Shown here: positions 1 through 58,615 of the stretch, in pieces
How positions within the stretch are numbered: the first letter of the stretch is position 1
Layout: every line of letters starts with the position of its first letter
From: a virus
IMG/VR virus record: IMGVR_UViG_3300043015_001060
Span: 1 to 58,615 of that record
Length of the DNA: 58,615 bases
Direction: 5' to 3' (one strand)
The notes under the pieces: model-generated
The model's input: only the letters and a program-made list of their open reading frames with translations
Database searches by the model: none
Told to the model about the DNA's origin: nothing
Program-made: the position numbers and the translations under genes

Positions 1-2
1 AA

Positions 3-1931
3 AGTGATGACGTTGTACTAATTAATATTGGCGAAAAAAGTTTAGCAAAATACGGACAATATCCTTTTCCTAGACAATACTATGCTCAAATGGTAGTAGA
101 CGTTGCTATAAAGAATGGTGGTGTTTTAGGTTGGACAATTATGTTTCCTGAAAAAGATAGATTTCAAGGAGATGAAAGTTTTGCAGGTATGATGAGTCAG
201 AACGTAATGAACGTTCCAGGTGCTAGAAAAAATCCTGTAAACTATAATGTACTAAGTCAAACTCCAAGTGTAAAAGGAACAAAAAGTACAGGTCCGCATA
301 TAGGCACAGGCACAATTGGTCCAGTTCCTGCAAAAGACTATTTGCTTACTTGGCCCAACTTGGTTACTAATGTTCCAATGCTAGAAGTTACAAGTAATGG
401 TAAAGGTGTAAATGCATCAGCACCACAACCAGATAATCAAACAAGAACATATCCATTAGCAATTACTGTGGGAGATAAAATATATCCCTCTTTTGCTGTG
501 GAAATGTTAAGAGTCAAAACAGGTAAACCTAGTTACATAATTAAGACAAGTGAGATAGGAATACAAGAAGTTGCTGTTCCACCATTTGACCCAATAGTAA
601 CACAACCAAACGGAACTGCATACATACGTTTTAATAATACATTTACTGAAATAGAATACGAAGGTGCAGAAAGCATACCAGATTTAGCAGGCAAATTTGT
701 TATAGTAGGTGTTACAGCAGAAGGCATTGCAAACCCTGTGCCTACACCAAGAGGAAATCTATATCCACAGCATATACAAGCACACATGCTACAAAATTTT
801 ATTGATGGTTCAAATATACAGCGGAGCCAGTTTGCGTCGCTTGTAGAGGTTCTTATAGCATCTGTGACTATGTTATTAATTGCATTAGCAGTATATAAAC
901 TTCCTTTACTATGGACAGCACCAATAAGTTTAAGTATTTTAATAGGTATTGTATATTTAAGTATAAAACAATATACTGGTAATCTAGTTTTATTAGACGC
1001 AACATTTCCTGTATTGAGTGGTTTCCTTGTATTCACACAGGCGGCATTTAATAACTTTTACAAACAGTTTAAATTACGTGAACAAATCAAGAAACAGTTT
1101 GAACACTACCTTGCTCCAGCAATGGTTAAAAAGTTACAAAAAGATCCAAGTCTATTACGTTTAGGTGGTGACACAAGAACAATGACATACTTGTTCTCAG
1201 ACATTCGTGGATTTACTCCTATATCGGAACAATTTAAAACAGACCCACAAGGTTTAGGTAAACTCATAAACAGATATATGACACCAATGACTGATTTAGT
1301 TATGCGTAAAGAAGGAACAATAGACAAGTATATAGGTGATGCCTTAATGGCTATATGGAATGCTCCACTTGATGTAGATAATCATGCTCAGTTGGCAATA
1401 GAGACAGCACAGGAAATGGAAGTAGAACTTAAAAATCTTAATAAAGACCTTAAAGAAGACGGACTTATGGAGTTAGGTGTCGGTATAGGTATTAATACAG
1501 GCGATGCAGTAGTAGGTAATATGGGCAGTAACCAACGATTTGATTACACAGTATTAGGTGATAGTGTAAACTTAGCGGCAAGACTAGAAGCACAAACAAA
1601 AGAGTATGGTGTCTTCTTTATGTTTACAGAGCATACATTAAACCAAATCACAACTCCAGAAAACTTAACAATGCTAGACAAAATTGCAGTCAAAGGTCAA
1701 ACAGCACCTGTAACAATTTACACTATATTAAAAGACCATAAGTATGCAAGAGTTGTAAATAGGATGGTTGATAGTTATCAAAACAGAGCATGGGCCGAAT
1801 GTGCAAATCAAATAGAAATTATTAAAGAGCACAACTGGAATAATACATTAGCAGAACTTTATGCAGACAGGATAAAACAACCTATGCCTAAAGGTGAATG
1901 GGACGGAGTAGAACGAAAGACTAGTAAGTGA
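3..1931 (+). CDS. CHASE2-domain class III adenylate cyclase (5' end outside window)
   Basis: The reading frame is open from base 3, so the start lies upstream; an internal ATG at 90 is not the true start. The first visible residues (DDVVLINIG, then YGQYPFPR) look like the core of a CHASE2 extracellular sensor domain. Three hydrophobic segments follow at about nt 840-1060. The C-terminal part (about nt 1185-1735) is a class III nucleotide cyclase domain. It has the two metal aspartates (FSDIRGFT and IGDALMAIW), the adenine-selecting Lys and Asp (DKYIGD, DYTVLGD), and the transition-state Asn/Arg (VNLAARLE), so it should make cAMP. The expected topology is an inner-membrane protein with a periplasmic sensor. 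Such regulators are normal in bacteria but unusual in a lytic phage. Family assignment is firm; role in infection is unknown. Confidence 0.9.
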   Translation, partial: SDDVVLINIGEKSLAKYGQYPFPRQYYAQMVVDVAIKNGGVLGWTIMFPEKDRFQGDESFAGMMSQNVMNVPGARKNPVNYNVLSQTPSVKGTKSTGPHIGTGTIGPVPAKDYLLTWPNLVTNVPMLEVTSNGKGVNASAPQPDNQTRTYPLAITVGDKIYPSFAVEMLRVKTGKPSYIIKTSEIGIQEVAVPPFDPIVTQPNGTAYIRFNNTFTEIEYEGAESIPDLAGKFVIVGVTAEGIANPVPTPRGNLYPQHIQAHMLQNFIDGSNIQRSQFASLVEVLIASVTMLLIALAVYKLPLLWTAPISLSILIGIVYLSIKQYTGNLVLLDATFPVLSGFLVFTQAAFNNFYKQFKLREQIKKQFEHYLAPAMVKKLQKDPSLLRLGGDTRTMTYLFSDIRGFTPISEQFKTDPQGLGKLINRYMTPMTDLVMRKEGTIDKYIGDALMAIWNAPLDVDNHAQLAIETAQEMEVELKNLNKDLKEDGLMELGVGIGINTGDAVVGNMGSNQRFDYTVLGDSVNLAARLEAQTKEYGVFFMFTEHTLNQITTPENLTMLDKIAVKGQTAPVTIYTILKDHKYARVVNRMVDSYQNRAWAECANQIEIIKEHNWNNTLAELYADRIKQPMPKGEWDGVERKTSK

Positions 1932-1937
1932 TAAATA
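1930..1937 (+). promoter_or_regulatory. T4-type late promoter (GATAAATA) for 1943 gene
   Basis: GATAAATA ends 5 nt before the ATG, placing it at the expected +1. Confidence 0.8.
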
Positions 1938-1942
1938 CTACT

Positions 1943-2248
1943 ATGGCACAGAACAAAATACAGCAAAAAGAAGAAGAAGTTTTAATAAAGGTCAGTATTT
2001 GGTCTAAGATTAAACATTGGTGGCGCACACTTATTAGAGAAGAATGGGAAATAACCATTTTCTTCCCTGGCGAAACTAGAATGCTGGAAGATGGGACCAC
2101 AATACAAAACGATGCTCCTAAAACTTATCGTGCTAAAAAAATAAAGAAACTCACAACTAAGCATATAATTTTTACAGACTTATTAGGTGTTAAACACGAA
2201 ATACGAGTTGTAAATCCTGTTGGGTATGACGTAAGAAAAATATACTAA
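1943..2248 (+). CDS. Small conserved-looking protein of unknown function
   Basis: A 101-residue protein starting MAQNKIQQKEEE. The ATG at 1943 is chosen over an in-frame ATT at 1928 because a GATAAATA late promoter ends 5 nt before it, which puts the ATG at the expected transcription start. The middle contains a Trp-rich basic stretch (IWSKIKHWWRTLIREEW), followed by a beta-rich part that would suit a small structural protein. I do not recognise the family. It ends one base before a convergent minus-strand gene. Confidence 0.7.
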   Translation: MAQNKIQQKEEEVLIKVSIWSKIKHWWRTLIREEWEITIFFPGETRMLEDGTTIQNDAPKTYRAKKIKKLTTKHIIFTDLLGVKHEIRVVNPVGYDVRKIY

Positions 2249-2881
2249 TTATTCGTCTGGCTCCCAATCTTTTATACTTCTAAAAAACAAATAATAGTGC
2301 CTAAAATCTTTTAATTGTTGCTTTGCATGAAACAATTCTAATGGCACTCCTTTGCTGTGTTTAATTAACGGAAAATAATATCTTTTTAATATCTTTTCGA
2401 TTTTTTTAACATCAGTTGCTAAAGCATCTAATAAAATATTATTAAATTCTAAATCTGTAACTAAGTCTATTAACCAGTAATGATAAGGATGTTCGGGGTT
2501 ATATCTTCGTACAACATCTCGTGTTTGGTAATATAATGCTCTTACAGGATTTATACCAGGACGGTATGAATTCATAACTTGTTTAAATCTAAAACTATCA
2601 TGTTCTGTGCGAAAATTTTTTATTACACTTGCATAATCGTTTTTCATTGCTTTTTTTACTGAACCAATATTTTCGCCAAGTTTTTGGTCATACTCTTTAT
2701 AGAGTTTATCAAATATTTTTTGATACTTCGAAGATAACTTCTCATAATAGATATCTTTTATTTCGTCTATTTCTATAGCACCTTCTAGTAGTGTATGTGG
2801 AATTGTAGTTGTTCTATCGAACTTGTCTAGTTCAGTGGTTATCCGCAATAGTACAAAATCGATTATTTCGCCTTTGCTCAT
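2249..2881 (-). CDS. Hypothetical protein, 210 aa
   Basis: Last gene, in map order, of the minus-strand block 2249-6914, with its own late promoter (GATAAATA, read on the minus strand at 2894-2887) exactly 5 nt before the ATG. The protein is rich in Lys, Glu, Tyr and Asp with predicted alpha-helical character and no membrane segment. I see no catalytic motif and do not recognise the family. Late expression suggests a virion or assembly role, but that is inference. Confidence 0.7.
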   Translation of the reverse strand: MSKGEIIDFVLLRITTELDKFDRTTTIPHTLLEGAIEIDEIKDIYYEKLSSKYQKIFDKLYKEYDQKLGENIGSVKKAMKNDYASVIKNFRTEHDSFRFKQVMNSYRPGINPVRALYYQTRDVVRRYNPEHPYHYWLIDLVTDLEFNNILLDALATDVKKIEKILKRYYFPLIKHSKGVPLELFHAKQQLKDFRHYYLFFRSIKDWEPDE

Positions 2882-2886
2882 ACTTA

Positions 2887-2894
2887 TATTTATC
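2887..2894 (-). promoter_or_regulatory. Late promoter, minus strand, for 2249-2881 gene
   Basis: GATAAATA on the minus strand, 5 nt before the ATG; lies at the end of the Nudix gene. Confidence 0.8.
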
Positions 2895-3318
2895 GAGAAT
2901 GAATTTCAAGAATAGTGTGTAGTTTTTCTGTTCCACCGTTTTTATTTAGAGTAATATGTGAACCATTATGTAAAGGCCTAGGCCAAACTCCAATATCAAT
3001 CCAGGCATATCCAGCACTTTCACAATTAAGTGAAGGAATAAATTCTTCGTCGACTACATATACAAAACTGTAATAGTAAAAATTTTTATCTTTGCTTTGA
3101 TATACGTCTATGGGATTTAATTTTTGTAGTTCTGGAACGAACCCAATTTCTTCGTCTAGTTCTCTAGTAATACATTGGTAAGGAGTTTCTCCGTCTTCAA
3201 TCATACCTCCCCAAAACCCCCAGGTATTATTAAATCGTTTGTTGCCTTCTCTAAGTTGTAATAAACATCTGCCTGTGTCTTTAGCAAGAAATACAACTCC
3301 TGCCGCCGTAGTAGTCAT
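2890..3318 (-). CDS. Nudix hydrolase
   Basis: A 142-residue protein with a complete Nudix box: G38-x5-E44, then R52-E53-L54-x-E56-E57-x-G59, the divalent-metal site that hydrolyses nucleoside diphosphate-X compounds. The ATG at 3318 overlaps the stop of the upstream gp15 gene as TAATG, which favours translational coupling over an in-frame TTG at 3336. The substrate cannot be read from the sequence; dNTP sanitation, NAD-related compounds and RNA caps are all possible. Its place behind two tail genes gives no functional clue. Confidence 0.9.
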   Translation of the reverse strand: MTTTAAGVVFLAKDTGRCLLQLREGNKRFNNTWGFWGGMIEDGETPYQCITRELDEEIGFVPELQKLNPIDVYQSKDKNFYYYSFVYVVDEEFIPSLNCESAGYAWIDIGVWPRPLHNGSHITLNKNGGTEKLHTILEIHSR

Positions 3319-4667
3319 TAAAGTGTCAATCTCCAAAAGGAAGGATTATATTCTCCTTCATAACTACTTATCCAGTTGTTGTTTATCCACCTATACTGTT
3401 TTGAAGTAAATGTGTTTTTAACATATTGCTCTTCGCTTATTGAACTAGCATCAAATACTACTATCCAGTTACTGCCGTTATATTCTATTATATCGTTTTC
3501 ATCGGCATCAACATTCCAATTTGGGTAGCCTGATGCAGTAATTTGTTGAGTAATTAAATACCTTTGTCCAGTTGCTACAGCATCTAATGTGCCATCACCT
3601 GGATAATTTTCACGAGGATCTATAATTTTATTTACATCATTAATAGTATTTGTAGGTAATGTGTCTACATCTAAATTAAATATTAATGTTGTAGGAGATG
3701 TAGGATGCGATGTAACTGTGCCGACTAATAATCCTAGATCGTTATCACTATCGTTACCTATGTTTAACTTTAGCAAACTTGTTGCTGATAATTTTCCTTG
3801 CTGATCTATTATATTAGACCAAGCAATTGGTTGTTCATTTTCATCTATTAGGATTGCACTATTACCTGTGACTTGAACCTTATAATCTCCAGCAGTAACA
3901 ATTATTTCGAATGTATCAGGAATATTACCAAAGAAATCTGCATAATCTTCGCTGTAGCCTAAATCTGCAATACTACTTGTTGAATGCACATCTGCTATTA
4001 TCTGCTGTATAATGCTTTGACGTTTAACTTTTGCTGGTGGACTTATCCAAATGGGTGAATTGAATGTTAATGATGAAATGTCTAAACTTTCGTCAACTCC
4101 TGCAGGAACACTTCTACTACTCCAAGATATATCAGATAACTCAACTTCAAATACACTTGTCCAATCTAGCGGATTGCTATTAGACTGTAATTGTATGCTT
4201 GGATTAAATAGAACAAAAATTTGTTCTAAAATTTGTAATTTTGTATCTGTGTTAGTTGTCCATATATCAACATTAAAGGTTAAGTTATATGGTACCGGCA
4301 TATATCTTTGTGTAGTATATAAGTTACCTTGAGTATTACTATAAGTATTAGTATCAGCATCATATTCCCTTTCTGCAACCTGTGTTGTGTCTACTAAAAA
4401 AGGTTCATGTGTTCTATCTCTTGCTGGCTGAATGCTTTGTATTGTAACTGCAATAAATGGTGCACTATTAATAACGTTTTCAGAATTATTACGCAATATA
4501 CTTGCAACCATTCTACTACTATCGCCATACCTTGCTGGTACACGATTATAATTTATTCCGTCTTTTGTAAATTCTCTAACTTTAAAATTAGAAAATACTC
4601 TTACAAGTTGTATCAGATATCTTTTAATCTGTTCGTCGTACCAATAATCTAAATTCTTGCCTGCCAT
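3318..4667 (-). CDS. gp15: Tail sheath stabilizer/completion protein, T4 gp15-like
   Basis: The N-terminal part shows the gp15 pattern: an aromatic start (YWYDEQIKRYLIQLVRVFSN), the RVPARYGDSSRM segment and, around residues 120-215, the VPYNLTFNVDIWT...EQIFVLFNP core. gp15 caps the tail tube and sheath and joins the tail to the neck. At 449 aa it is much longer than T4 gp15 (about 270 aa). The extra C-terminal part holds short W/Y/N-rich segments (YNGSNWIVV, YRWINNNWISS) like those in gp14 and gp18 here. It starts immediately after gp14 (shared base at 4667). Confidence 0.75.
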   Translation of the reverse strand: MAGKNLDYWYDEQIKRYLIQLVRVFSNFKVREFTKDGINYNRVPARYGDSSRMVASILRNNSENVINSAPFIAVTIQSIQPARDRTHEPFLVDTTQVAEREYDADTNTYSNTQGNLYTTQRYMPVPYNLTFNVDIWTTNTDTKLQILEQIFVLFNPSIQLQSNSNPLDWTSVFEVELSDISWSSRSVPAGVDESLDISSLTFNSPIWISPPAKVKRQSIIQQIIADVHSTSSIADLGYSEDYADFFGNIPDTFEIIVTAGDYKVQVTGNSAILIDENEQPIAWSNIIDQQGKLSATSLLKLNIGNDSDNDLGLLVGTVTSHPTSPTTLIFNLDVDTLPTNTINDVNKIIDPRENYPGDGTLDAVATGQRYLITQQITASGYPNWNVDADENDIIEYNGSNWIVVFDASSISEEQYVKNTFTSKQYRWINNNWISSYEGEYNPSFWRLTL

Positions 4668-6972: not shown

Positions 6973-7063
<91 letters not shown>

Positions 7064-8406: not shown

Positions 8407-9265
8407 AGGTGCTAGACCTATAAGAAATAAAGAAGTTTCTACATTTCACAAAAATTTAAAAGATTTAAAGATACCGTCTATAGAAGAATATGCACACATT
8501 TGGAGAGAGTGGCTTAATTATTCTAACACAAAAAGCCTTGAAGGTCTAGATCAATTTAAACATGCAGACTACACGCAAGGTACAAGTCAAACGTTTGATC
8601 AGTTTATTTTAAAACATAGTAAAGACAGACAAATTCTAGTACTAGAAGGTGATTTTCAATACCACGCATGTTTAGGAAAACACGTTGATTTTAAATATAT
8701 AAATCACCCACATCATTTAGAATCTCATTTATTAGGATCAGGATTACATGCTTTATTAATAAGTGCGCCGTTTAGTGATTTTGGTTGTATACACCCTGAG
8801 TTTGAGCATCTTATGAATATATGTGAGGTACATGATATTCCTGTATGCTTAGATTTAGCCTATTGGGGTATAGCAAAACACATACATATCAATCTTAATG
8901 ATTACCCTGCAATAAAAGAAGTCACATGCAGTCTTAGTAAGCCTTTCTTTACATTAGAGAATCACAGAGTAGGTATACGTTTTACAAGGGAATATGTCGA
9001 CGATGGTATTAGTATGCTAAATGAAGTAAAAATGGCAAATAATTATTCTATGGCATTAGGTGTAGAGTACATGAAAAACTTTAGTCCTGATTATAATTGG
9101 GAAAAATACGAAAACCAATACATAAAGATTTGTGAAGAACAAGATTTAGTCTGGTGTGATACAGTAATATTTGGTCTAGGTGATGATGTTAGGCATGCAG
9201 AATTTAATAGGGGAGTGTCGGGTAATTATCGAGTTTGTGTTTCTGAATGGTTAGCAGATGATTAA
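8393..9265 (+). CDS. PLP-dependent aminotransferase-like protein (fold type I), short
   Basis: At 290 aa this is shorter than usual aminotransferases (about 400 aa). The middle shows a fold-type-I pattern: a D154-L-A-Y157 segment like the PLP-pyridine Asp region, then SLSKPF with K183 as candidate Schiff-base lysine, followed by NHRVGIRF. It could transaminate a keto-sugar or amino acid in the pathway of the downstream amidinotransferase. The N-terminal cofactor-phosphate region is not obvious, so it may be degenerate or partner-dependent. Its start overlaps the preceding gene by 14 nt. Confidence 0.55.
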   Translation: MPAVRGARPIRNKEVSTFHKNLKDLKIPSIEEYAHIWREWLNYSNTKSLEGLDQFKHADYTQGTSQTFDQFILKHSKDRQILVLEGDFQYHACLGKHVDFKYINHPHHLESHLLGSGLHALLISAPFSDFGCIHPEFEHLMNICEVHDIPVCLDLAYWGIAKHIHINLNDYPAIKEVTCSLSKPFFTLENHRVGIRFTREYVDDGISMLNEVKMANNYSMALGVEYMKNFSPDYNWEKYENQYIKICEEQDLVWCDTVIFGLGDDVRHAEFNRGVSGNYRVCVSEWLADD

Positions 9266-15914: not shown

Positions 15915-18668
15915 ATGGCGACATTGACTAGCCCTGGTGTAAGTATAACAACATCCGACGAATCTTTCTATGCTCCTGCAGGAGCCGGTACAGTACCTTT
16001 GATTGTGATCTCAACAGCACAAGATAAATCTGCACCAGACGGAAGTGGAACAGCAAGTTACACTACATCAGCCAATGCAAACAAACTTCAATTGATTACA
16101 AGTCAAAGAGAGTTATTACAAAATTACGGAAATCCAGTATTCAAAACTAGTGGTGGAACAGCACTACATGGTAATGAACAAAATGAATATGGATTATTTG
16201 CCGCATACAGTTTTTTAGGTATTGCTAATCGAGCCTATGTCTTAAGAGCAGACATTGACTTAGAAGAGTTGACACCTAGTACTACATCACCAACTAAGAA
16301 ACCAGCCGATGGTGCTTATTGGTTAGATGCTAGTTCAACTACATGGGGTATCAAAAAATACAACGGCACAGCATGGGAATTACAAACTGTTAAAGTTCCT
16401 AGTGCAAGTGAAATTAATAGTTCAGGAAATCCAAAAACAGCATTTGGTTCTGACAACGATTTTTGTGTAGTATATTATACAGACGCTGGTGCTACTGCAA
16501 GTACTATTAAGTTTTTCCAAAAACTTAGCGGTGCATGGTATCATTTAGGTTCAAGTAATTGGACAAGTGCAGTAAGTGGATCAAACGGTGACTTCCAATT
16601 TGCAAGTCATTTGTTAATACCTACAACTAAAGGTGGAGGCGGATCCTTAACATCAGGTGATGTATTTTTACAAACAACAACATCAAACAATGGTTCTAAT
16701 GTTATTGTTAAAAAATATTCCACATCAAGTGCTCAATTCACAACTGAAAGTATCGTATTAAAAACACTTTCGAATTCAGTTTATGCAAATGATTATCCAA
16801 CTCCAACAGTTGGCGATCTTTGGGCAGATGCAGACGACTCTAACTTAGGAACAATTAATTTAACAAGACATAATGGTGGAACAAGTTTAAGTGCTACATC
16901 AACAACTGCTTTAGCAGACGGAGTTGATCTTAGTGCTCATACAGGAAAAACATCAATTGGTTTTAAAATTAATCATGGTTCACAGGTAAATGTAACATTA
17001 GCAAATGTTGATGGTTCTAATGTTACTTCAGTATCCGTTGACGATATTGCGGCTTCTATTACTAATGCATTAAGTTCTAATGTTGCAACAGCAAGTAATG
17101 TAGAAGGTAAGTTGAGTATTACTGTAAGCAATGGTACTGATTTAGAAGTTATAGACGGTAATGTTGCAGGATTTACAGCATCAAACTTAAATTTAACAGC
17201 ACAGATTTATTCAAACTTTGCAGATTTAAGTTATGAAGCAAGTTCAACAGCAATTACTGGTAACCCAGTAGAAGGCACTTTATGGTATGATAACAATGTT
17301 TCAAATACTAACATTGATATGTTATATCAAAATGCTGGCTCATGGGCAACATATTCAAATGATGTTCAATTTGCCGCAAGTGCACCAACACTACAAAGCG
17401 ATGGTTCAAGTTCATTGGTAACTGGCGATTTATGGATTGACAGCAGTGACTTAGAAAACTTCCCTGTAATTTATAAAAGATCAGCAACTTCAACTTGGGT
17501 ACTAGTAGATAATACAGACCAAGTATCTGAAGATGGTATTTTATTTGCAGATTACAGAGCAAGTTCATCAGGTAGTGCATACTCAGACGCACCAAGTGCC
17601 GCATTATATCCAAGTGGTATGTTGCTATGGAACAAGTCTGCATCAGTTGGTAATATTAAATCATATGATGCAACAAACAGCAGATGGGTTGATTACAGTG
17701 GTAACAAAGAAGACGGTTCACCTTACATGATGCGTAAAGCACAAAGAAAGGCAGTAACTAAAGCATTACAATCAACATTAAACAGCAACGATGCAATAAG
17801 AAATGAATCTAATAGATTTAATATCTTAGCAGTTCCTGGATATGGTGAATGTTTAGATGAAATGTTAGCACTAAGCACATCTAGAAAAGACACAGTATTT
17901 TGTGTAGCAGACGCACCATTTAGATTGGCCGCAGACGCAACAAGCACTCAAAACTGGGCAACTAATTCTAGTATTGCTACTGAGAACGGTGAAGATGGAC
18001 TTGTAAGTAGTTCTTACAACGCCGCAGTATATTATCCACATGGATTAGCAAGTAACCTAGACGGTACTAACGTAATGGTTCCTGCTTCGCACATGGCTTT
18101 GAGAACTATAGCATTTAATGACCAGGTATCATTCCCATGGTTTGCACCAGCAGGCTTCCAAAGAGGTCTTGTTAATAATGCTACAAGCACAGGATACTTA
18201 GATTCAACTACTGGAGAATTCCAATCAGTTAGTTTAAGTGAAGGACAAAGAGACAGTCTTTACCTTAACAAAATTAACCCTGTTGGAAACTTCCCAGGTA
18301 GAGGTATTGCAGTATTTGGACAAAAAACTTTGAATCCAAGTGCAAGTGCATTAGATAGAATTAATGTAGCAAGATTGGTTATTTACATCAGAGAACAACT
18401 TGATGATGCAGTAAAACCGTTCTTGTTCGAACCAAACGACGAAGTAACTAGAGCAAATGCTAAAGTAGTAGTTGATAGATTCTTAGGCCAATTGGTAACA
18501 CAAAGAGGTTTATTTGACTTTATCACAGTTTGCGACACTACTAATAACACTCCAGCAAGGATTGACAGAAATGAATTGCATATTGATATTGCTATTCAAC
18601 CTGTTAAAGCAGTTGAGTTTATTTACATTCCGATCAGAATTCAAAATACTTTGGGTTCAACAGGCTAA
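15915..18668 (+). CDS. gp18: Contractile tail sheath protein, T4 gp18-like, with large insertion
   Basis: At 917 aa it is far longer than T4 gp18 (659 aa). The conserved start (MATLTSPGVSITTSDESF) and C-terminal region (NRFNILAVPGYGE...DQVSFPWFAPAGFQRG...ELHIDIAIQPVKAVEFIYIPI) are typical sheath. Residues about 120-600 are mostly insertion, with several copies of a G-D/T-L/Y-W-x-D ... Y/K ... W pattern, probably beta domains exposed on the tail surface. It has its own GATAAATA promoter with a 41-nt leader, a strong Shine-Dalgarno (TTAGGAG) and an intrinsic terminator, as expected for an abundant late protein. Confidence 0.95.
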   Translation: MATLTSPGVSITTSDESFYAPAGAGTVPLIVISTAQDKSAPDGSGTASYTTSANANKLQLITSQRELLQNYGNPVFKTSGGTALHGNEQNEYGLFAAYSFLGIANRAYVLRADIDLEELTPSTTSPTKKPADGAYWLDASSTTWGIKKYNGTAWELQTVKVPSASEINSSGNPKTAFGSDNDFCVVYYTDAGATASTIKFFQKLSGAWYHLGSSNWTSAVSGSNGDFQFASHLLIPTTKGGGGSLTSGDVFLQTTTSNNGSNVIVKKYSTSSAQFTTESIVLKTLSNSVYANDYPTPTVGDLWADADDSNLGTINLTRHNGGTSLSATSTTALADGVDLSAHTGKTSIGFKINHGSQVNVTLANVDGSNVTSVSVDDIAASITNALSSNVATASNVEGKLSITVSNGTDLEVIDGNVAGFTASNLNLTAQIYSNFADLSYEASSTAITGNPVEGTLWYDNNVSNTNIDMLYQNAGSWATYSNDVQFAASAPTLQSDGSSSLVTGDLWIDSSDLENFPVIYKRSATSTWVLVDNTDQVSEDGILFADYRASSSGSAYSDAPSAALYPSGMLLWNKSASVGNIKSYDATNSRWVDYSGNKEDGSPYMMRKAQRKAVTKALQSTLNSNDAIRNESNRFNILAVPGYGECLDEMLALSTSRKDTVFCVADAPFRLAADATSTQNWATNSSIATENGEDGLVSSSYNAAVYYPHGLASNLDGTNVMVPASHMALRTIAFNDQVSFPWFAPAGFQRGLVNNATSTGYLDSTTGEFQSVSLSEGQRDSLYLNKINPVGNFPGRGIAVFGQKTLNPSASALDRINVARLVIYIREQLDDAVKPFLFEPNDEVTRANAKVVVDRFLGQLVTQRGLFDFITVCDTTNNTPARIDRNELHIDIAIQPVKAVEFIYIPIRIQNTLGSTG

Positions 18669-25429: not shown

Positions 25430-27016
25430 ATGGCAAGAGGAACTGCGGATACCAGTCTGGTCAAACAAGGCTATAGTAGAATTGCCTATACACCAGAAAC
25501 ATTAGAAGATTTTAAAAAGTGTGCTGATCTAGAATCAGGACCATTGCACTTTATGACAAATCATGTCAAAATTCAACATCCTACAAAGGGAGGCATGGAT
25601 TTTGATCCATTTAGTTATCAATTAGATCTAATAGAAAACTACAATAATTACAGATACAGTATCAACATGCTGGGTAGACAGATGGGTAAAACCACTGTAG
25701 CGGCAGGATACTTGCTGTGGTATGCTATGTTTAGACCCGACAGTACAATATTAGTTGCGGCTCACAAACAAGCAGGTGCTCAGGAAATTATGCAACGTAT
25801 TAGGTATGCTTACGAAAGTGTACCAGATTACATTAGAGCAGGTGTAACAGAATATAATAAAGGTAGTATAAGTTTTGATAACGGTAGTAGAATTGTAGCA
25901 AGTACAACAACCGAAAACACTGGTAGGGGTATGTCGCTTACATTAGTATACTTAGACGAGTTTGCTTTTGTGCCTCCTAGAATAGCCAGCGAGTTTTGGA
26001 CATCACTATCACCCACACTAGCAACAGGTGGTAAGTGTATTATTACAAGCACACCAAATAGTGATGAAGATACCTTTGCTATGATTTGGAATCAGGCAAA
26101 CAAGTTGTTTGATGAGTTTGGAAATGAACAGGACGTAGGTGTAAACGGATTCAAGCCATTACTTGCAAAATGGGAAGAACACCCAGACAGAGATTCAATT
26201 TGGGCAACAGAAGAACGTGGTAGAATTGGAGAAGAACGTTTTAGACGTGAACACGAATGCGAATTTATTATATATGACGAAACACTTATAGATCCACTTG
26301 TATTAATAGAATTAAAAGGTGTCGACCCTCAAATTAAAATGGGGCAAGTTCGTTGGTACAGTCAACCTAATCAAGATAGCATTTACATAGTAACTTTAGA
26401 TCCAAGTACAGGAACAGGCGGAGATAATGCCGCTATACAAGTATTAGAATTACCTAGCATGAAACAGGTTGCAGAATGGAATCATAACAAAACGCCTATA
26501 GAAGGCCAAGTAAAAGTTATGATGGAAATTATGTATTACATAAAAGAAACATGTAAATCTTCTATATACTGGACTGTAGAAAATAATGCCATAGGTGAAG
26601 CGGCCTTAGTAGTTATAAGAGATACTGGAGAAGATCAGTTCCCAGGAGACTTTTTACACGAACCAAAAAAGATACAAGGTAAGAAAGGACGTAAAGGATT
26701 TCACACTACACACAAAAATAAAATGGAAGCCTGTTTGCAATTAAAAAGATTAGTAGAAAGCAATAAAATTTTTATTAAAAGTAAAGCACTAGTAAGTGAA
26801 CTAAAGAATTTTGTTGCAACACATAATACATTTAGATCTAAGCCAGGACAAACAGATGATTTAGTAATGGCATTAGTTGTTGCAATTAGAATGATAGAAT
26901 ATGTAAGTACTTTTGAAGATGATGTTTATAATGCTGTAAATAGTAGTTTAACATACAATCCACAAGACGATGATGACGATCCTGCTAACAGTCCGCTACC
27001 AATTGGTATCTTATGA
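25430..27016 (+). CDS. gp17: Terminase large subunit, T4 gp17-like
   Basis: A 528-residue packaging motor: ATPase Walker A-like GRQMGKTT (about residues 82-90), Walker B LVYLDEFAF (about 172-180), and motif III-like ITSTPNS. The C-terminal RNase H-like nuclease has acidic residues in VTLDPSTG (about 322) and DDLVMAL (about 477). It translocates DNA into the prohead and cuts concatemers. A TATAAATA promoter lies 6 nt before the ATG, so the message is probably leaderless. Confidence 0.97.
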   Translation: MARGTADTSLVKQGYSRIAYTPETLEDFKKCADLESGPLHFMTNHVKIQHPTKGGMDFDPFSYQLDLIENYNNYRYSINMLGRQMGKTTVAAGYLLWYAMFRPDSTILVAAHKQAGAQEIMQRIRYAYESVPDYIRAGVTEYNKGSISFDNGSRIVASTTTENTGRGMSLTLVYLDEFAFVPPRIASEFWTSLSPTLATGGKCIITSTPNSDEDTFAMIWNQANKLFDEFGNEQDVGVNGFKPLLAKWEEHPDRDSIWATEERGRIGEERFRREHECEFIIYDETLIDPLVLIELKGVDPQIKMGQVRWYSQPNQDSIYIVTLDPSTGTGGDNAAIQVLELPSMKQVAEWNHNKTPIEGQVKVMMEIMYYIKETCKSSIYWTVENNAIGEAALVVIRDTGEDQFPGDFLHEPKKIQGKKGRKGFHTTHKNKMEACLQLKRLVESNKIFIKSKALVSELKNFVATHNTFRSKPGQTDDLVMALVVAIRMIEYVSTFEDDVYNAVNSSLTYNPQDDDDDPANSPLPIGIL

Positions 27017-34189: not shown

Positions 34190-34225
34190 TAGTACTTAAT
34201 GAACTATATCTTTTTTTGGAGAAAT

Positions 34226-35965
34226 ATGAATAAATTAGATAAGAACTTTCATATCAATATGTCTCCTTTATATTTAACATTTGTTTTCATGATTTTTATG
34301 TTATGGGCAAGTGAAGTAAAAGGCGATGAGATAGAAGAAATTATTGTAACTGCTCAACAAGAGGAAACTGTGGTAGCAAATCCTGTTACATCAAGTAGCC
34401 TTATTAGTGCAATACAAGAAGACTTTACATACTCACAAGGTGGATATGGTGGTTTTGTAGGCTACAATGAGCGAGGTGCTCAAACAATACATACATCAGT
34501 TTATGTAAATGGTATACCAGCAAATGGCACAGGCAGTGGTTGGTATGATTTTGGACACGATTTTGCAAGTGGACAAACTGTAAAGGTTATTTCAGGTGCA
34601 AACGGAGTGTTATATGGCTCAGGTAGTATTGCTGGTGCAATACTTATTACTGATACAATTGATAGCGGTTTAACAGTACGGCTCGAAGACGATATAAAAT
34701 TTGCCAGAGTTGCACCTACTGATTCAATTGAATTTAGTATGATAAACGATGGCATGGATAGTGTTCGCAACGACAATGATGAAGAAGACAGTTACAAAAA
34801 TAAAACTGCAAGGTTTGATGTTGATGCTGGAGACTTTAATCTAGTAGGCAAATATACAGATTACGAATATGATTATGACAACTGTTATACTTCAAGTTTC
34901 TCTCAAAGCAATGACTGTTTACAAGACGGCGAACGTTACAATGTTGCTATTAGAAACAACATACTAACATTAGGTAGAGCATACGAAAAATCAGAATACT
35001 TTACTGAAGGTGATTCAACATACGTGAATGAAAACTATAGAGACTTTCTTAGAGTTGGTAAGCAAATGATTCTAAGTAACAAACTAAATGTTACATACGG
35101 TCTAGATGCAGAACAGCAACACTATAAAACATCATCTCCTTATAGTTCAAACATATATGAAGATGAGAACTTTGCTGTATTCATGTCTGCTAATGCTGAC
35201 TTTGTAATGAGTTACAACTTTGGATTTAGACTAGGTAACGATGATCAAAATGCTCTTAGACTTGGTATTGAAAATGGACCATGGTATTTTAACATTGGTG
35301 ACAGTTTTAGAAAACCTAACTTGTATGAAAAGTTTGGTGATGCCTATGTCGATGGCGACGAAGATCTAAAGCCTGAAGAAGGTATTGGATATGAATTAGG
35401 CTTTGGCGTTATGAGTTTATTTAGATATGAGTTCGATGAAACAATTGAGTATGTAGCAGGATATTCTACTACTGTAGTTGTAGAACCAGAAGTAAGTGTA
35501 ACAGATCCTGACACAGGTGAAGTTACTGTAACACCTGCTGTAACAGAAGATGTGTACACAAATGCCACGTACGCAAATGGTGGTGATTACATCACACAAG
35601 GTTTTAGATTTGCTAATAACTTTGGACCAGTGTATTTAAGTTTAAAGTATACAGATACTGAACAACCTAGAGTACCAAAAATATCAGGTGCTGTACAATA
35701 CAGTAAAGATGTTTATGGTGTAAATCTTAGAATTAAGTATGCAGTACAACTAGATAGAGAACCTAGTCAATATGATGTACTACCAGAAGGACAAACAAAG
35801 TTAGATGATCTTAAGAAGTTAAATTTTTATGCTACTAAAGATTTCAATAACGGATTTGTTTTATCGTTTAAGGTAGAAAATATCACAGACGAAGATGTTG
35901 AAGTAGTTCCTTTCTATGGAGTTGAAGGTACTGAATATTATTTGACATTAGGCTATAAGTGGTAG
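34226..35965 (+). CDS. TonB-dependent outer-membrane receptor encoded by the phage
   Basis: A 579-residue protein. A hydrophobic signal-like segment (PLYLTFVFMIFMLWASEVKG) is followed by a TonB-box-like EEIIVTAQ. A plug domain follows with VKVISGANGVLYGSGSIAGAILI, then a beta-barrel with PNLYEKFGDAYVDGDEDLKPEEGIGYELGFG. It ends with ENITDED...YYLTLGYKW, terminating in the aromatic residue used by barrel-assembly machinery. It would sit in the host outer membrane. ATG 34226 is chosen for its TTGGAG; an upstream in-frame ATG at 34199 has none. A sigma70-type promoter (34162-34189) suggests early expression. Highly unusual in a phage. Confidence 0.88.
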   Translation: MNKLDKNFHINMSPLYLTFVFMIFMLWASEVKGDEIEEIIVTAQQEETVVANPVTSSSLISAIQEDFTYSQGGYGGFVGYNERGAQTIHTSVYVNGIPANGTGSGWYDFGHDFASGQTVKVISGANGVLYGSGSIAGAILITDTIDSGLTVRLEDDIKFARVAPTDSIEFSMINDGMDSVRNDNDEEDSYKNKTARFDVDAGDFNLVGKYTDYEYDYDNCYTSSFSQSNDCLQDGERYNVAIRNNILTLGRAYEKSEYFTEGDSTYVNENYRDFLRVGKQMILSNKLNVTYGLDAEQQHYKTSSPYSSNIYEDENFAVFMSANADFVMSYNFGFRLGNDDQNALRLGIENGPWYFNIGDSFRKPNLYEKFGDAYVDGDEDLKPEEGIGYELGFGVMSLFRYEFDETIEYVAGYSTTVVVEPEVSVTDPDTGEVTVTPAVTEDVYTNATYANGGDYITQGFRFANNFGPVYLSLKYTDTEQPRVPKISGAVQYSKDVYGVNLRIKYAVQLDREPSQYDVLPEGQTKLDDLKKLNFYATKDFNNGFVLSFKVENITDEDVEVVPFYGVEGTEYYLTLGYKW

Positions 35966-40642: not shown

Positions 40643-41740
40643 ATGTATCAATTTACAAGTGAAAGTGTCAGTGAAGGGCATCCAGATAAAATAGCAGACT
40701 TGATATCCGATAAAGTAGCAACATACTTGCTGAATAATGAAATTAATAATAGGACAGCAATTGAAACGTTAGTTACAACCAATATGGTTACATTGGCAGG
40801 AGAATATAAAACTAATATAGAAGTTGATAATAACTACATAGACGAAATCGTTAGACAAACAGTTAAAGAAATAGGTTACGAACAAACAGGGTTTCATTGG
40901 AAGAATTTAAAAATCTATAATGAACTACATGGCCAAAGCGAAGACATTGCATTAGGTACAGACTCATTTGGGGCAGGCGATCAAGGAATAATGTTTGGAT
41001 ATGCATGTAATGAAAATGAACATTACATGCCATCACCACTAATATACTGTCATAAAATTTTAGAATCTTTAAGTGATAGTAGAAAAAATGATTCTGAATA
41101 TAGCATTATTAGACCAGACAGCAAAGCACAGATAACATTTAACTATGCAAATACAGGCGAACCTATCGACATTGATAAAGTATTAGTTAGTACTCAACAC
41201 AGCGAAGATAGTACACAGGATCAAGTAAAAGAACTAGTTCACAAAACAATTAGTAAAGTAGTACCAAATGAATTACTAAAAAATGCTGAGTACTTAATAA
41301 ATCCAACTGGTAGATTTGTTATCGGTGGACCAGATGGAGATACTGGACTTACTGGAAGAAAAATTATTGTTGATACTTATGGAGGAGCCGCACCTCATGG
41401 TGGCGGAGCATTTAGTGGTAAAGATCCTTCTAAAGTTGATAGAAGTGCGGCTTATATGGCTAGATGGATAGCAAAAAATATTGTTAAACGATATAATTTT
41501 AAGAATGTATTAGTTCAAATAAGTTATGCTATAGGAGTTGTGCAACCAACATCATTAGTAATCTTTACTGATGGTAAGATAAATGAAAATATAATCCAAC
41601 AGGTAAAAGATCAAGTAGATTTATCTCCGTTAGGTATTATACAAAGATTTGGATTAGGTTGTCCTACACCACTAGACATTAGTACTAACTATGGACATTT
41701 TGGTAAAGATCATTTACCATGGGAAAGAGATGATTTATAA
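40643..41740 (+). CDS. metK: S-adenosylmethionine synthetase
   Basis: A 365-residue MetK with all three family blocks: SESVSEGHPDKIAD (ATP site), GAGDQGIMFGYA (methionine-binding loop region), and GGPDGDTGLTGRKIIVDTYGG with GGGAFSGKDPSKVDRSAAY near the active site. It makes SAM from methionine and ATP in the cytoplasm. In this phage SAM could serve the radical SAM enzyme at 5754 or unseen methyltransferases. It overlaps an APRT gene downstream, which can salvage adenine. Confidence 0.97.
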   Translation: MYQFTSESVSEGHPDKIADLISDKVATYLLNNEINNRTAIETLVTTNMVTLAGEYKTNIEVDNNYIDEIVRQTVKEIGYEQTGFHWKNLKIYNELHGQSEDIALGTDSFGAGDQGIMFGYACNENEHYMPSPLIYCHKILESLSDSRKNDSEYSIIRPDSKAQITFNYANTGEPIDIDKVLVSTQHSEDSTQDQVKELVHKTISKVVPNELLKNAEYLINPTGRFVIGGPDGDTGLTGRKIIVDTYGGAAPHGGGAFSGKDPSKVDRSAAYMARWIAKNIVKRYNFKNVLVQISYAIGVVQPTSLVIFTDGKINENIIQQVKDQVDLSPLGIIQRFGLGCPTPLDISTNYGHFGKDHLPWERDDL

Positions 41741-47184: not shown

Positions 47185-47832
47185 ATGAAGTTATATGTAA
47201 ACGGTTGTAGTTTTAGTTACGGTAATACTTTAGAAAACAAATCTGCTTGGCCAGATTTTATGGAAGGTTATGAAGTTATTAATGAAAGTTGGATAGGTAG
47301 CAGTAATAAAAGGATACTTAGACGAACAAAAGAATATATAAAAACTCATGCAGTAAATGATACTATGTTTGTAATACAATTATCAGATTGGTTTAGAGAT
47401 GAATGGTATGATTCAGAATTTGATACTTGGATAGGTATGTGTAAAAATGATGTTGTATTAGATGATTTATCTTATAATAGAAGTGATATTGATATAGATG
47501 AACTTAATAAAAAAGTTACAAGTTTTGTACATCATTCTCTACTACATAGAAGTATTAAGACTGTAGAAGAAGAAACATATAACCTTATTAATTCAATGGT
47601 AGCATTCTTCAATCAACATGAGATACCTTACATGTTTACAGGAATGAGTTCACGTTGTATGCCTGCAGAAAATAATGTAGACATAATTGTACCTACGCAT
47701 TTTGTAAAACCTATAAGTATAATAGCAGGTAATAATGTAATAAGCACCAGCGATAGCCATCCAGACGATGCAGGACATAAACTATTTGCTAGATATATAA
47801 CTAATGAGATAAAGAATTATGAGCGATATTAA
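47185..47832 (+). CDS. SGNH-hydrolase-like protein 2
   Basis: A 215-residue protein starting MKLYVNGCSFSYG (nucleophile Ser in G-C-S) and ending with DSHPDDAGHKLF, a D-x-x-H block V. Diverged relative of the protein at 22029. ATG 47185 directly follows the previous stop. Esterase or deacylase activity is inferred; substrate unknown. Confidence 0.65.
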   Translation: MKLYVNGCSFSYGNTLENKSAWPDFMEGYEVINESWIGSSNKRILRRTKEYIKTHAVNDTMFVIQLSDWFRDEWYDSEFDTWIGMCKNDVVLDDLSYNRSDIDIDELNKKVTSFVHHSLLHRSIKTVEEETYNLINSMVAFFNQHEIPYMFTGMSSRCMPAENNVDIIVPTHFVKPISIIAGNNVISTSDSHPDDAGHKLFARYITNEIKNYERY

Positions 47833-49201
47833 AGAGTACAACGAAGAAACACAGGAACTATTTTTAAGATTTTTACTTAGCGACAATGACTTGTTTGCTA
47901 GATGTCAAAACATAGTTAAGCCTGAGTTTTTTAATTTAAAATATAGAAAAGCAGTAGATCTTTTTATTAGCCATAGTGTAAGCCATAATGCTATCCCTAC
48001 GCCTGAACAAGTTAGTGCAGTAGCAGGTATAAAACTAGAACCTATTCCAAATGTAACACCCGATCATCACAACTGGTTTATGAATGAGTTCGAGACATTC
48101 TGCAGACACAAAGCATTAGAAAAAGCAATTATTGAAAGCACAGACTTGTTAGAAAAACAAGACTATGGTACTGTGGAAAATAAAATTAAAGAAGCAAGCC
48201 AGGTAGGCTTAGTAAAAGATTTAGGTTTAGATTATTTTGAAAATCCGAAAGAAAGACTTGAATGGATCAAAGCACAGGCTGGTGCTATTAGCACAGGCTG
48301 GAAAGCAATAGATCAAAAACTATATGGTGGCGTTAATAGAGGAGAAATGTCAATATTTGCAGGAGGGTCAGGAGCGGGTAAAAGTTTATTCTTACAGAAT
48401 TTTGCTGTTAATTGGGTACTTGCAGGATATAATGTAGTTTATATTAGTTTAGAACTTAGTGAGCAACTTATTAGTATGAGACTAGACAGTATGGTTTCCG
48501 GCTATGGCGTGAAAGAAGTTATGAAAAACATCAGTGATGTAGATCTAAAAGTTCGTATGAAAGCCAAAGGTGCAGGTAGACTTAGAGTAAAACAGATGCC
48601 TAATGGTGTTACATCAAATGATCTCAGAACATTTTTACGTGAATATGAAATATCCTGTGGTGAAAAAGTAGATTGTTTACTTGTAGATTATCTAGATTTG
48701 ATGATGCCTATAAGTACAAAAGTAAGTGGCAGTGATTTGTTTATCAAAGACAAATATGTATCTGAAGAATTACGTAATTTAGCAGTAGAAAGAGACTTAT
48801 TATTTGTTACAGCATCGCAGTTAAATAGAGGTGCAGTAGAAGAAATAGAATTTGATCATCACCACATAGCAGGTGGTATCAGTAAAGTACAAACAGCAGA
48901 CAATGTTGTAGGTATATTTACTTCAAATGCTATGCGAGAAAAAGGCAGATATCAAATACAGTTTATGAAAACACGTTCTAGTAGTGGTGTTGGCACTAAA
49001 GTAGATTTAAGATTTGATCCTGACACACTAAGAATAGAAGACTTACAAGATGGTGACGAAGATGCAATGACTATTACTACAGGTTCACTAGTAGATCAAC
49101 TTAAACGTAATAATAGTATCAAAGCAGACGAACCTGAAGCACAAGACACAGTTAGCCAAGCAATGAATATGCGTGAGTTCTTGAAAAAGAATGACTTATA
49201 A
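47819..49201 (+). CDS. gp41: Replicative DNA helicase, T4 gp41-like (DnaB family)
   Basis: A 460-residue DnaB-type helicase: N-terminal helical domain, Walker A GGSGAGKS (about residues 182-189), VVYISLELSE, a Walker B-like VDCLLVDYLDLM, and a late QFMKTRSSSGVG Arg-finger region. Works with gp61 and gp32. Overlaps the SGNH-like gene by 14 nt. Confidence 0.94.
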   Translation: MSDIKEYNEETQELFLRFLLSDNDLFARCQNIVKPEFFNLKYRKAVDLFISHSVSHNAIPTPEQVSAVAGIKLEPIPNVTPDHHNWFMNEFETFCRHKALEKAIIESTDLLEKQDYGTVENKIKEASQVGLVKDLGLDYFENPKERLEWIKAQAGAISTGWKAIDQKLYGGVNRGEMSIFAGGSGAGKSLFLQNFAVNWVLAGYNVVYISLELSEQLISMRLDSMVSGYGVKEVMKNISDVDLKVRMKAKGAGRLRVKQMPNGVTSNDLRTFLREYEISCGEKVDCLLVDYLDLMMPISTKVSGSDLFIKDKYVSEELRNLAVERDLLFVTASQLNRGAVEEIEFDHHHIAGGISKVQTADNVVGIFTSNAMREKGRYQIQFMKTRSSSGVGTKVDLRFDPDTLRIEDLQDGDEDAMTITTGSLVDQLKRNNSIKADEPEAQDTVSQAMNMREFLKKNDL

Positions 49202-54458: not shown

Positions 54459-54733
54459 AATTACAAGAATTCAGCAGTATACTTGAAGCCAGAATGGTAT
54501 GGCGTAAACAAGGTAATAAGATTAAACGTGCAGTTCGTTGTACTAGTGGTCCTAGAAAAGGTAGAGTGGTTGCAACATCATCACAATGTTCTAAACCTAT
54601 CAACATAGCAAAAAGATTAAATCTCAAACGAACTAAAGCCAAACTAGGTGGCAGGATGAGGTTCAAAGCAAAAAGAACAAAGAGAATGAATCCTTTGAGC
54701 AGAAGATTAAGAACACTTAATAAGAGAAGGTAA
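54455..54733 (+). CDS. Very basic internal head protein
   Basis: ATGA overlap with the preceding gene. The 92-residue protein begins MKLQEFSSILEARMV with a gp21-type site after E11 (I-L-E|A). The mature part is extremely Arg/Lys-rich (KRAVRC, RLNLKRTKAKLGGRMRFKAKRTKRM), so it should bind DNA in the capsid. An alternative start at 54377 in the same frame lies inside the upstream gene and lacks a CTS-like beginning. Confidence 0.7.
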   Translation: MKLQEFSSILEARMVWRKQGNKIKRAVRCTSGPRKGRVVATSSQCSKPINIAKRLNLKRTKAKLGGRMRFKAKRTKRMNPLSRRLRTLNKRR

Positions 54734-57700: not shown

Positions 57701-58615
57701 GGGAAGACAAAGAAAAATATGTAAGTATTGCTAAACAAGTAAGCAAACTAGGAATAGAATTACTAGAGGCATTGAAGCCTAAAAAACTTGATCCATATGA
57801 CGGCCCAAATTATCTGGCTTCGCACAATGAACTAGATCGATGGAATGATGTAATGGACAGGCTTGTAAAAGCAGACAGTGAAATAGGAACAGATGAACAA
57901 ACATTCAATTTACCTGCTCTTATTGATGATTATGTATTAGCATCTATCAATTTAAATAATTATTATAGAGAAAAAGAATTAGGTACAACAATTAGTTCAG
58001 AAATAAAGTCATTAATTAAAGAACGATTTGCGGCAATAAAAAAATTCTTATCAGCATTTGATAAAATATTCCAGAAAGAAGGATTTGTAAATCTTAAACA
58101 AGAAATAAAAGCCAAAAATACTTTGGATAAACGCAACAAAGACTTTGAAAAGAATGTCAGAGACAACGCAAAAGCAAAACTAAACATACCAAGTCACAGT
58201 TGGGTGTACATAGACAAAGACTTTTTTGACACTATTACTGATGACAACTACGAAGACAGAGCGGCATATTTAGATAATCATATAGAACATTTTAATGACA
58301 AAGTAAACCAATCTAAAGTTTATGTCATACCTTCCAGTCATTTTAGCGATGCCGAGGACGCCACTAATGGCTTAGAACTCATAGACACTTTTGAAAAAAA
58401 CAAAAACTATTATCACACCTGGCGTAAAAAGGGTTATAAAAAAATAGTAAATAGATTCAACAACAAATATGGTTATAGTTGGAAGGACTTAATCGACCCA
58501 GATAAGTTTATTCAAGGCGATGGTGATGTATATCAAAAATTACAAAGACTTGGTATTGAAGTCACTCACAAAGGCGACAGCAGAAAAGGTGCACCTGGAC
58601 AAGAAGATTTATTTC
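54733..58615 (+). CDS. Giant late protein with amidoligase domain (3' end outside window)
   Basis: An open frame of at least 1294 codons from the TAATG at 54733 to the window end. MKFKDLRTIQTLLKEYG resembles the preceding internal-protein starts. An Amidoligase_2-like domain is visible: CGFEAET near residue 230, W-A-V-x-K-D-S-S at 450-457, ELISP at about 467, GLHVTM at about 501 and VEFRIAGGT near 597. Such enzymes form amide bonds with ATP. Residues about 245-445 are an acidic, Asp/Glu/Tyr/Trp-rich insertion. Beyond residue 700 it is helical and unrecognised. Location implies a virion protein, perhaps ejected. Confidence 0.8.
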   Translation, partial: MKFKDLRTIQTLLKEYGMTPGAPTSSGNQRTGSIVNKVSSSPTINGTKQKEKPKTVSANTVKVNSRITSPDGKKSGKVVSPVNKNPAFGGVVVQSDDGEYFIIKGKDRVQMQPEEVTEDLKDYASTPEIHNRALQIAKDAYKKSNKQVSFTKLYDKALEKIDPMYGNIEEGKLGKLARKNNRKLKIKDLKGKIKKLSRKRLKEADPKLFEINFNKKEIAQQGLDAPVKCGFEAETFFYSVEGGRSNDVDDMSISDIEYEYGDMPDQVWEDFEDWLYDKGQDEYLDDLIYDKVEEVREDEEYLNDFIDSGSGPSSEAIERYKKDFEEEDPKEYENREEDGWEYMNWVREYVEEEYEEAYLEWLRNNVQEDNDLGNDAREAARQDYNVEDWIYRNYDYMSSFLNDYGYEYGGGSGDVEGVADELWNWIKDNSKFDSYPETGDYDDTYTTTSWAVEKDSSIEPDEGTGAELISPVFDSPRKMLEEMRSLFQWSEENFGTNNSTGLHVTMSWQGKKAEQNKLKMALLLGDEYLLAEFGRLKNSYTKSQYRNILKYAEGMKRGDAKSFKQFEEMLTKGIDTGKFNSIHFKGEKDNDSENNLVEFRIAGGTDYNTMYEKVVKACVRYATIMKAGYEEDAFRKDYVNAVFRLLRKAQEIDPNKLKDLEVVNHEVIDSAKSIVGKKDYFDVIKLLSTSVEYLQAYKELSDPDADKQWKQSIKDYEKGTGDKVEIEEVEEKEPMTGYIMPSALAPSRRAPGELDKAQDRFGSAITLLARDIADGNNRAPVSAKHIGAFRKFAKELKLDIKQIEKLALSGMNNYNFDGTDKEKIARLQKGINSLFKQDIIKKPEYLSIKDVDVIGSKMWQFYQSDDAKDNGKMDKLADLLVNLNPSNNKIDVEEILRELPQERSENGFYAKLKGSGWNTRVSLLKNNGITSKGSAQELLKFLEPYGGYKHPTSPDHHVNIKSDDPYTDVFLMRLTQRLRARLDHLKDLEREDKEKYVSIAKQVSKLGIELLEALKPKKLDPYDGPNYLASHNELDRWNDVMDRLVKADSEIGTDEQTFNLPALIDDYVLASINLNNYYREKELGTTISSEIKSLIKERFAAIKKFLSAFDKIFQKEGFVNLKQEIKAKNTLDKRNKDFEKNVRDNAKAKLNIPSHSWVYIDKDFFDTITDDNYEDRAAYLDNHIEHFNDKVNQSKVYVIPSSHFSDAEDATNGLELIDTFEKNKNYYHTWRKKGYKKIVNRFNNKYGYSWKDLIDPDKFIQGDGDVYQKLQRLGIEVTHKGDSRKGAPGQEDLF

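What the first reader, a model, noticed from the sequence alone, without database searches (positions are those of the whole stretch)
1..58615. AGCT appears to be absent from the whole window
By eye on the single given strand (the motif is palindromic, so both strands are covered) I find no AGCT. Every other palindromic tetramer I looked for (GATC, CATG, GTAC, CTAG, GGCC, CCGG, GCGC, CGCG, ACGT, TGCA) does occur. With this base composition I would roughly expect on the order of a hundred or more. Codon choice shows the avoidance: Ala after an A-ending codon is GCA, GCC or GCG but not GCT, for example CCA-GCC-GCT. This fits selection against an AluI-type restriction enzyme, or another process acting on AGCT.
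Basis: seen in the sequence. Interest (0 to 1): 0.88.

Follow-up and report, generated by a model that had tools for sequence, protein, structure and literature searches.

The report
Jumbo phage purged of AGCT sites
A 58.6-kb piece of a large T4-like phage from environmental (mostly coastal) samples holds not one copy of the four-letter word AGCT where more than a hundred are expected, most likely because its lineage has edited out the cutting sites of restriction-type enzymes; that strategy is known, but AGCT is only one of several purged words here, and the pattern of what is spared in its relatives is new and unexplained.

Summary
Confirmed: AGCT occurs 0 times in 58,615 bp (expected 115 by second-order Markov, 124 ± 9 by codon shuffling). 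The record is a fragment of a T4-like, probably jumbo-size, phage. It is not an assembly fluke: 15 near-identical loci from other records (136.5 kb) also hold none, and of 483 AGCT sites in aligned relatives none is kept in the window, against 32-45% for other palindromes. Best reading: purifying selection against Type II-like restriction, a known anti-restriction strategy. (1) GCWGC is equally absent (0 of 43-49) and is purged across a wider clade; HGCGCD and GCNNGC lacking GGC are absent too. (2) In most relatives AGCT is not avoided as such: HAGCTD is gone (8 of ~5,700) while GAGCT/AGCTC survives. The same 5'-G tolerance holds for GCGC, GCNNGC and AGCGT. Only the window's lineage and a few others also lost GAGCT. 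No methyltransferase or restriction gene was found in the window, the host is unknown and no cognate enzyme was identified, so the agent is inferred. The flank rule is the genuinely unexplained part.

The parts
1..58615 (.). Whole record: no AGCT, no GCWGC, no HGCGCD, no GCNNGC without GGC/GCC, no H-flanked AGCGT/ACGCT
25430..27016 (+). Terminase large subunit (T4 gp17-like); marker for the tree of avoiders and non-avoiders
   Evidence: Pfam PF03237/PF17289; relatives; tree
47819..49201 (+). DnaB-like helicase; second marker
   Evidence: Pfam PF03796; relatives
3318..4667 (-). T4 gp15-like tail sheath stabiliser; third marker
   Evidence: Pfam PF16724; relatives
15915..18668 (+). Tail sheath protein
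   Evidence: Pfam PF17482
28455..29483 (+). gp32-like single-strand binding protein
   Evidence: Pfam PF08804
29493..30599 (+). RecA-family (UvsX-like) recombinase
   Evidence: Pfam PF00154
35977..37434 (+). UvsW-type helicase; the ResIII hit is its helicase domain, not a restriction enzyme
   Evidence: Pfam PF04851, PF00271; UvsW reading is inference
40643..41740 (+). S-adenosylmethionine synthetase (metK)
   Evidence: Pfam PF00438/PF02772/PF02773
90..1931 (+). CHASE2-guanylate/adenylate cyclase-like protein; among isolate phages near full-length relatives only in Pelagibacter phage HTVC008M and Methylophilales Melnitz phages
   Evidence: Pfam; tblastn
2021..2028 (.). First of 12 GCGC sites, each with a 5' G on one strand (TGGCGCAC); the others start (8-base context) at 8763, 11971, 15018, 19636, 21927, 43882, 52465, 53246, 53654, 53660, 54792

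Best explanation
The window is a fragment of a T4-like phage whose lineage has been purged of AGCT, mostly by synonymous change, by selection against a nuclease of the orthodox Type II restriction kind that cuts unmodified double-stranded AGCT in its hosts. AGCT is one of several layers: GCWGC is purged over a wider set of phages, HAGCTD across the whole clade A, and the remaining G-flanked AGCT only on the window's own branch and a few others. Shown: the absence, its strength, its double-strand symmetry, its distribution on the tree. Inferred: that the agent is a host restriction enzyme, and the order of the layers.
For: AGCT 0 of 115-124 expected, with other palindromes normal. 0 of 483 aligned AGCT sites of relatives conserved, against 32-45% for GATC, TGCA, CATG, ACGT. 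Same-species loci all zero: 136.5 kb. Nearly all purged words are self-complementary, degenerate ones included (AGCT, GCWGC, GCGC, GCNNGC; lineage-specific GCAN5TGC in L288-L293; RCATGY in the MED657 phage), the form of orthodox Type II sites. Counts in relatives are equal on sense and antisense strands (GAGCTD 283, HAGCTC 264), so the target is duplex DNA. No overall gain of AACT/AGTT (O/E 1.04), so deamination is not the driver. GCWGC loss maps to two strongly supported clades in the terminase tree; words differ by lineage, as changing host repertoires predict. No DNA methyltransferase was seen in the window, nor, for PF00145, PF01555 and PF02086, on the phage contigs of a more distant zero-AGCT phage. 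Literature: about one tenth of prokaryotic virus genomes show complete or nearly complete loss of sites, mainly orthodox Type II sites (PMC6286503).
Against: No host and no cognate enzyme identified. A host repertoire constant enough to keep GCWGC and HAGCTD at zero over relatives as far as 68% terminase identity is unusual, since restriction systems change quickly. The tolerance of 5'-G-flanked sites is not a property of AluI as known to me. Sampled stretches of isolate phages of Methylophilales (MEP301, Melnitz) and Pelagibacter (HTVC008M, HTVC010P) do not purge GCWGC. One purged word, AGCGT, and AGCCC in the MED657 phage, are not palindromic.
Confidence: 0.75

Rival explanations
1. The phage itself encodes a nuclease that cuts AGCT (and GCWGC) to shred host DNA, and spares itself by lacking the sites.
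For: Absolute and clade-wide purging that follows phage phylogeny is what a resident enzyme would cause. Only a fragment of the genome is at hand.
Against: No endonuclease candidate recognised in the window by Pfam, PHROGs or PADLOC (only the first 25 of 35 PHROG families were printed). Purged words differ between lineages, which would need a changing set of phage enzymes.
Confidence: 0.1
2. A DNA modification carried by the phages (for example at GGC and GA) protects G-flanked sites, so only unprotected restriction sites were purged; the window's branch met an AGCT enzyme that this does not stop. This is an addition to host restriction rather than a replacement for it.
For: One rule covers several words: residual AGCT 758 G-flanked to 8, GCGC 371 to 2, AGCGT 96 to 14, GCATGC 61 to 10, against 31% expected; TACGTA, where the flank gives GT, is not spared. 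GCNNGC is spared when GGC lies inside. Phage 7-deazaguanine protects DNA from restriction (PMC6884629); that its motifs in phage CAjan are GA and GGC is from my memory, not checked.
Against: GGCWGC is not spared (6 of 540). GAGCT is lost in the window and other lineages while GGCGC stays normal there. No TGT-family (DpdA-type) gene in 48 phage fragments, no QueC in 17 fragments; on the MED657 phage contigs no TGT hit and only a weak partial QueC-domain match.
Confidence: 0.12
3. A mutational process (methylation of AGCT followed by deamination, or a biased polymerase) removed the word.
For: AACT and AGTT are the commonest words at lost sites (82 and 74 of 483).
Against: AGCA (72) and AGGT (35) are also common there, AACT/AGTT are not enriched overall, and mutation pressure alone does not hold a word at exactly zero.
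Confidence: 0.03

Closest known systems
Restriction-site avoidance in prokaryotic viruses (survey PMC6286503)
   Same: Complete loss of a short palindromic word of orthodox Type II kind in a dsDNA phage
   Different: Here several words are purged at once and spared only in a set flank context; host and enzyme unknown
HF1-group haloviruses (HRTV-7 lacks AGCT; the isolates lack GATC and CTAG; PMC7230728)
   Same: AGCT count of zero ascribed to host restriction-modification
   Different: Archaeal viruses; no flank rule mentioned in the passages read
Pseudomonas phage PA5oct group (Wroclawvirus, Arenbergviridae)
   Same: Closest isolates by terminase (59%), DnaB (55%), gp15 (39%)
   Different: AGCT and GCWGC not purged in the PA5oct stretch
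AGCT-centred m4C motifs in Ca. Methylopumilus (GMAGCTKC, HCAGCTKC, BGMAGCTGD; PMC6329791)
   Same: AGCT core with a non-G base before it, like HAGCTD
   Different: Narrower motifs, methylation only, no enzyme found there; link to this phage's host is only suggestive

Membership tests
Type II restriction-site avoidance | Word absent or nearly so against Markov and codon-shuffled expectation | tested here: met
   0 vs 115 and 124 +/- 9
Type II restriction-site avoidance | Word is palindromic and avoided on both strands alike | tested here: met
   AGCT is palindromic; strand symmetry in relatives
Type II restriction-site avoidance | Other palindromes are not avoided in the same way | tested here: met
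   GATC, TGCA, CATG near the codon-shuffled expectation; GCGC and CGCG are low and GCWGC is a further avoided word
Type II restriction-site avoidance | Host encodes a nuclease of that specificity | not testable with these tools
   Host unknown. The MAG holding a more distant zero-AGCT phage carries C5 methyltransferases flanking a 464-aa ORF, specificity unknown
T4-like myovirus | gp17, gp15, gp18, gp32, UvsX and gp41-like genes | tested here: met
Arenbergviridae (PA5oct relatives) | Close protein identity and shared gene set | tested here: inconclusive
   Best isolate hits but only 39-59% identity; branching support 82/78 with long branches
7-deazaguanine-modified phages | DpdA/TGT-like gene and preQ0 pathway | tested here: inconclusive
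   No PF01702 in 48 phage fragments, no PF06508 in 17, but fragments cover only part of the genome
Phage with own protective methyltransferase | DNA methyltransferase gene | tested here: inconclusive
   None seen in window ORFs; no PF00145 or PF01555 in 33 virus records, no PF02086 in 17; genomes incomplete

The most novel reading that the evidence does not exclude
The flank-dependent sparing (sites with a 5' G or an inner GGC survive, all others are purged, for AGCT, GCGC, GCNNGC and AGCGT alike) is the footprint of an undescribed agent: either a sequence-specific protective DNA modification in these phages or a family of host nucleases that all reject G-flanked sites.
Probability: 0.3. Interest if true: 0.72.

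Novelty: new variant of a known kind. Interest (0 to 1): 0.5.

Why it matters
Word absence this clean reads out the restriction environment of uncultured hosts from phage DNA alone: it gives testable specificities (AGCT, GCWGC, HAGCTD, HGCGCD) without host or enzyme in hand, and it sorts phage contigs out of a mixed MAG. The flank rule, if caused by a protective modification or by nucleases that reject G-flanked sites, would be new biology of widespread aquatic phages.

Tried and rejected
Host from MAG bins: ten terminase hits lie in bins named Cloacimonadota, Neomarinimicrobiota, Betaproteobacteria, Rickettsiales, Euryarchaeota, Pelagibacter, Methylophilaceae and Gammaproteobacteria, so bin names are not trusted. 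Host from shared genes: the cyclase is shared with Pelagibacter and Methylophilales phages, but sampled phages of both hosts lack the word signature. Type I or III bipartite motifs: none convincing in the window. Deazaguanine as sole cause of the flank rule: does not explain GGCWGC or lost GAGCT. Gene association between avoiders and non-avoiders: fragments cover too little. N6/N4 methyltransferase survey of Methylophilaceae gave no specificity; the weak 295-aa hits in small genomes are probably PrmC, by memory. Structure of the 464-aa ORF between two C5 methyltransferases: mean pLDDT 31, unusable. The genome search refuses patterns as short as these words.

Full report
WHAT THE WINDOW IS. The record is a whole IMG/VR entry of 58,615 bp, GC 33.4%. 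Its genes are those of a T4-like myovirus: terminase, gp15, tail sheath, gp32, UvsX, a UvsW-type helicase, DnaB-like helicase. The nearest isolates are the PA5oct group (terminase 59%, DnaB 55%, gp15 39%), whose genomes are about 287 kb, so the window is probably a fragment of a jumbo-size genome (inference). Relatives come from many metagenome records; that most are coastal or estuarine is my reading of the IMG sample numbers, from memory.

THE OBSERVATION. AGCT count is zero, against 115 (second-order Markov) and 176 (composition), and 124.3 +/- 8.7 with codons shuffled inside genes. GATC, TGCA and CATG behave normally in the same control. Fifteen loci of the same species, 136.5 kb, also hold none. 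Aligned to relatives, 483 AGCT occurrences at 137 window positions have no AGCT counterpart in the window, while 32-45% of GATC, TGCA, CATG and ACGT sites are kept; of the classified changes 309 are synonymous and 163 not.

IT IS NOT ONLY AGCT. GCWGC is also zero (expected 43-49), with GCSGC raised about four- to fivefold instead (67 vs 12 by dinucleotide model, 59 vs 16 by codon shuffle). All 12 GCGC sites have a 5' G on one strand, all 30 GCNNGC sites contain GGC or GCC, and no H-flanked AGCGT/ACGCT exists.

RELATIVES. In the terminase tree GCWGC is zero in two well-supported clades: A (39 rows, with the window) and B (26 rows), and present in all other rows; two changes of state are needed. 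In clade A, HAGCTD is zero in every terminase locus; over about 1.9 Mb it is 8 of about 5,700 expected, whereas G-flanked AGCT is 749 of 2,228 (0.34, against 0.64 in non-avoiders). In the window's species, and in the set L025, L027, L036 with L277, L279 and L288-L293, the G-flanked form is gone too (0 of 117 and 0 of 203). In clade B the state of AGCT varies (0 to 0.8 of expectation). Stretches of the isolates PA5oct, Phosso, Atu_ph07, Vibrio 2.275.O and SCTP-2 hold both words.

THE FLANK RULE. In clade A the survivors of purged words are almost all 5'-G-flanked: AGCT 758:8, GCGC 371:2, AGCGT 96:14, GCATGC 61:10, GCTAGC 8:2, GCAAGC 70:28, against an expected G share of 31%. TACGTA (4:16) and CGCG (10:207) do not follow it, and common palindromes show shares nearer to expectation (27-44%). 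GCNNGC is also spared when GGC lies inside the spacer (GCAGGC, GCCGGC), but G-flanked GCWGC is not spared (6 of 540). I know of no single cause. The rule is the same on both strands (GAGCTD 283, HAGCTC 264), so it acts on duplex DNA.

ANOTHER CASE. The MAG MED657 (named Rickettsiales) holds contigs of a more distant relative (terminase 54%) recognisable by the words alone: 442 kb with AGCT 0 of 1,363 and GCWGC 0 of 394, while 240 kb of other contigs in the bin are normal. These contigs were chosen by the missing words in their first 3 kb, so the zero over their whole length is the test, and T4-type Gp23 and portal genes are among their ORFs; one chosen contig (C3, L488) held 7 AGCT and was left out. 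AGCCC (5 of 325) and RCATGY are purged there as well. Other contigs of that bin carry C5 methyltransferases, two of them flanking a 464-aa ORF; their specificity is unknown and the bin is not proof of host. The structure prediction of that ORF failed.

MECHANISM. The best reading is purging by host Type II-like restriction: mostly palindromic words, lineage-specific sets, duplex-level symmetry, no deamination footprint, and no own methyltransferase found. The step that is not shown is the enzyme. A survey of almost 4,000 virus genomes found complete or near-complete elimination in about a tenth, mainly for orthodox Type II sites (PMC6286503); HRTV-7 lacks AGCT for the same supposed reason (PMC7230728). 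In an arbitrary sample of IMG/VR loci, 3 of 57 with enough expectation also lacked AGCT. So the bare finding is ordinary in kind; its strength, the number of words and the flank rule are not.

HOST. Unknown. Hints toward Methylophilales (AGCT-centred m4C motifs with non-G flanks in Ca. Methylopumilus, PMC6329791; a related phage in a Methylophilaceae bin; a shared cyclase gene) are weak, and the sampled phages isolated on Methylophilales lack the signature.

LIMITS. All IMG/VR phage records are fragments, so absence of a gene is weak evidence. Loci overlap and are related, so pooled counts are not independent events. Expectations are model-based; the non-avoider group is the empirical control. 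The flank rule was found by looking at the same data that show it, but it recurs in the window, in the zero-AGCT set and in clade B for GCGC.

Noticed in passing
window 1-58615: GCWGC is completely absent and GCSGC is in excess; this purge is found over a wider set of phages than that of AGCT.
   Followed up: yes
L303 (Puniceispirillum phage HMO-2011, 1-25000): Opposite pattern to clade A: G-flanked AGCT 0 of 49 while HAGCTD is normal (126); GATC, CCAGG and GAGCG are also absent.
   Followed up: partly
L304 (HTVC010P), L301 (HTVC008M), L302 (S-PM2): Stretches of other marine phages have their own fully absent words: HTVC010P lacks GGCC, GCCC, ACGG, CTAAG, CTCAG; HTVC008M lacks TCGA; S-PM2 lacks CCGG. 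PMC9516812 reports no restriction-modification genes in its Pelagibacterales genomes, so the pelagiphage cases lack an agent.
   Followed up: no
L288-L293: This clade A lineage also lacks GCAN5TGC (BstAPI-like word), 0 of about 20 for each of three overlapping variants.
   Followed up: no
window 40643-41740: Phage-borne S-adenosylmethionine synthetase, at most about 50% identical to any in the phage collection.
   Followed up: partly
window 90-1931: CHASE2 plus cyclase domain protein shared with Pelagibacter and Methylophilales T4-like phages.
   Followed up: partly
window 6973-7063: tRNA-Ser with anticodon GCT.
   Followed up: no
window 34199-35965: Protein with a TonB-dependent receptor plug domain, no match in the phage collection.
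   Followed up: no
clade A and B contigs (alignment A3): Single ORFs match RuBisCO large-chain catalytic domain, Cu/Zn superoxide dismutase and CsgG; not traced to individual loci.
   Followed up: no
MAG MED657 (G029), contigs C1, C2, C5, C6, C10, C12, C13, C19, C21-C24, C26, C29: Phage contigs mixed into a bacterial MAG can be told apart by the missing words alone.
   Followed up: yes
L247, L253, L254: Related phage contigs outside the two clades of the tree with partial or complete GCWGC loss (2 of 30, 3 of 21, 0 of 18) while AGCT is normal or only moderately low.
   Followed up: no
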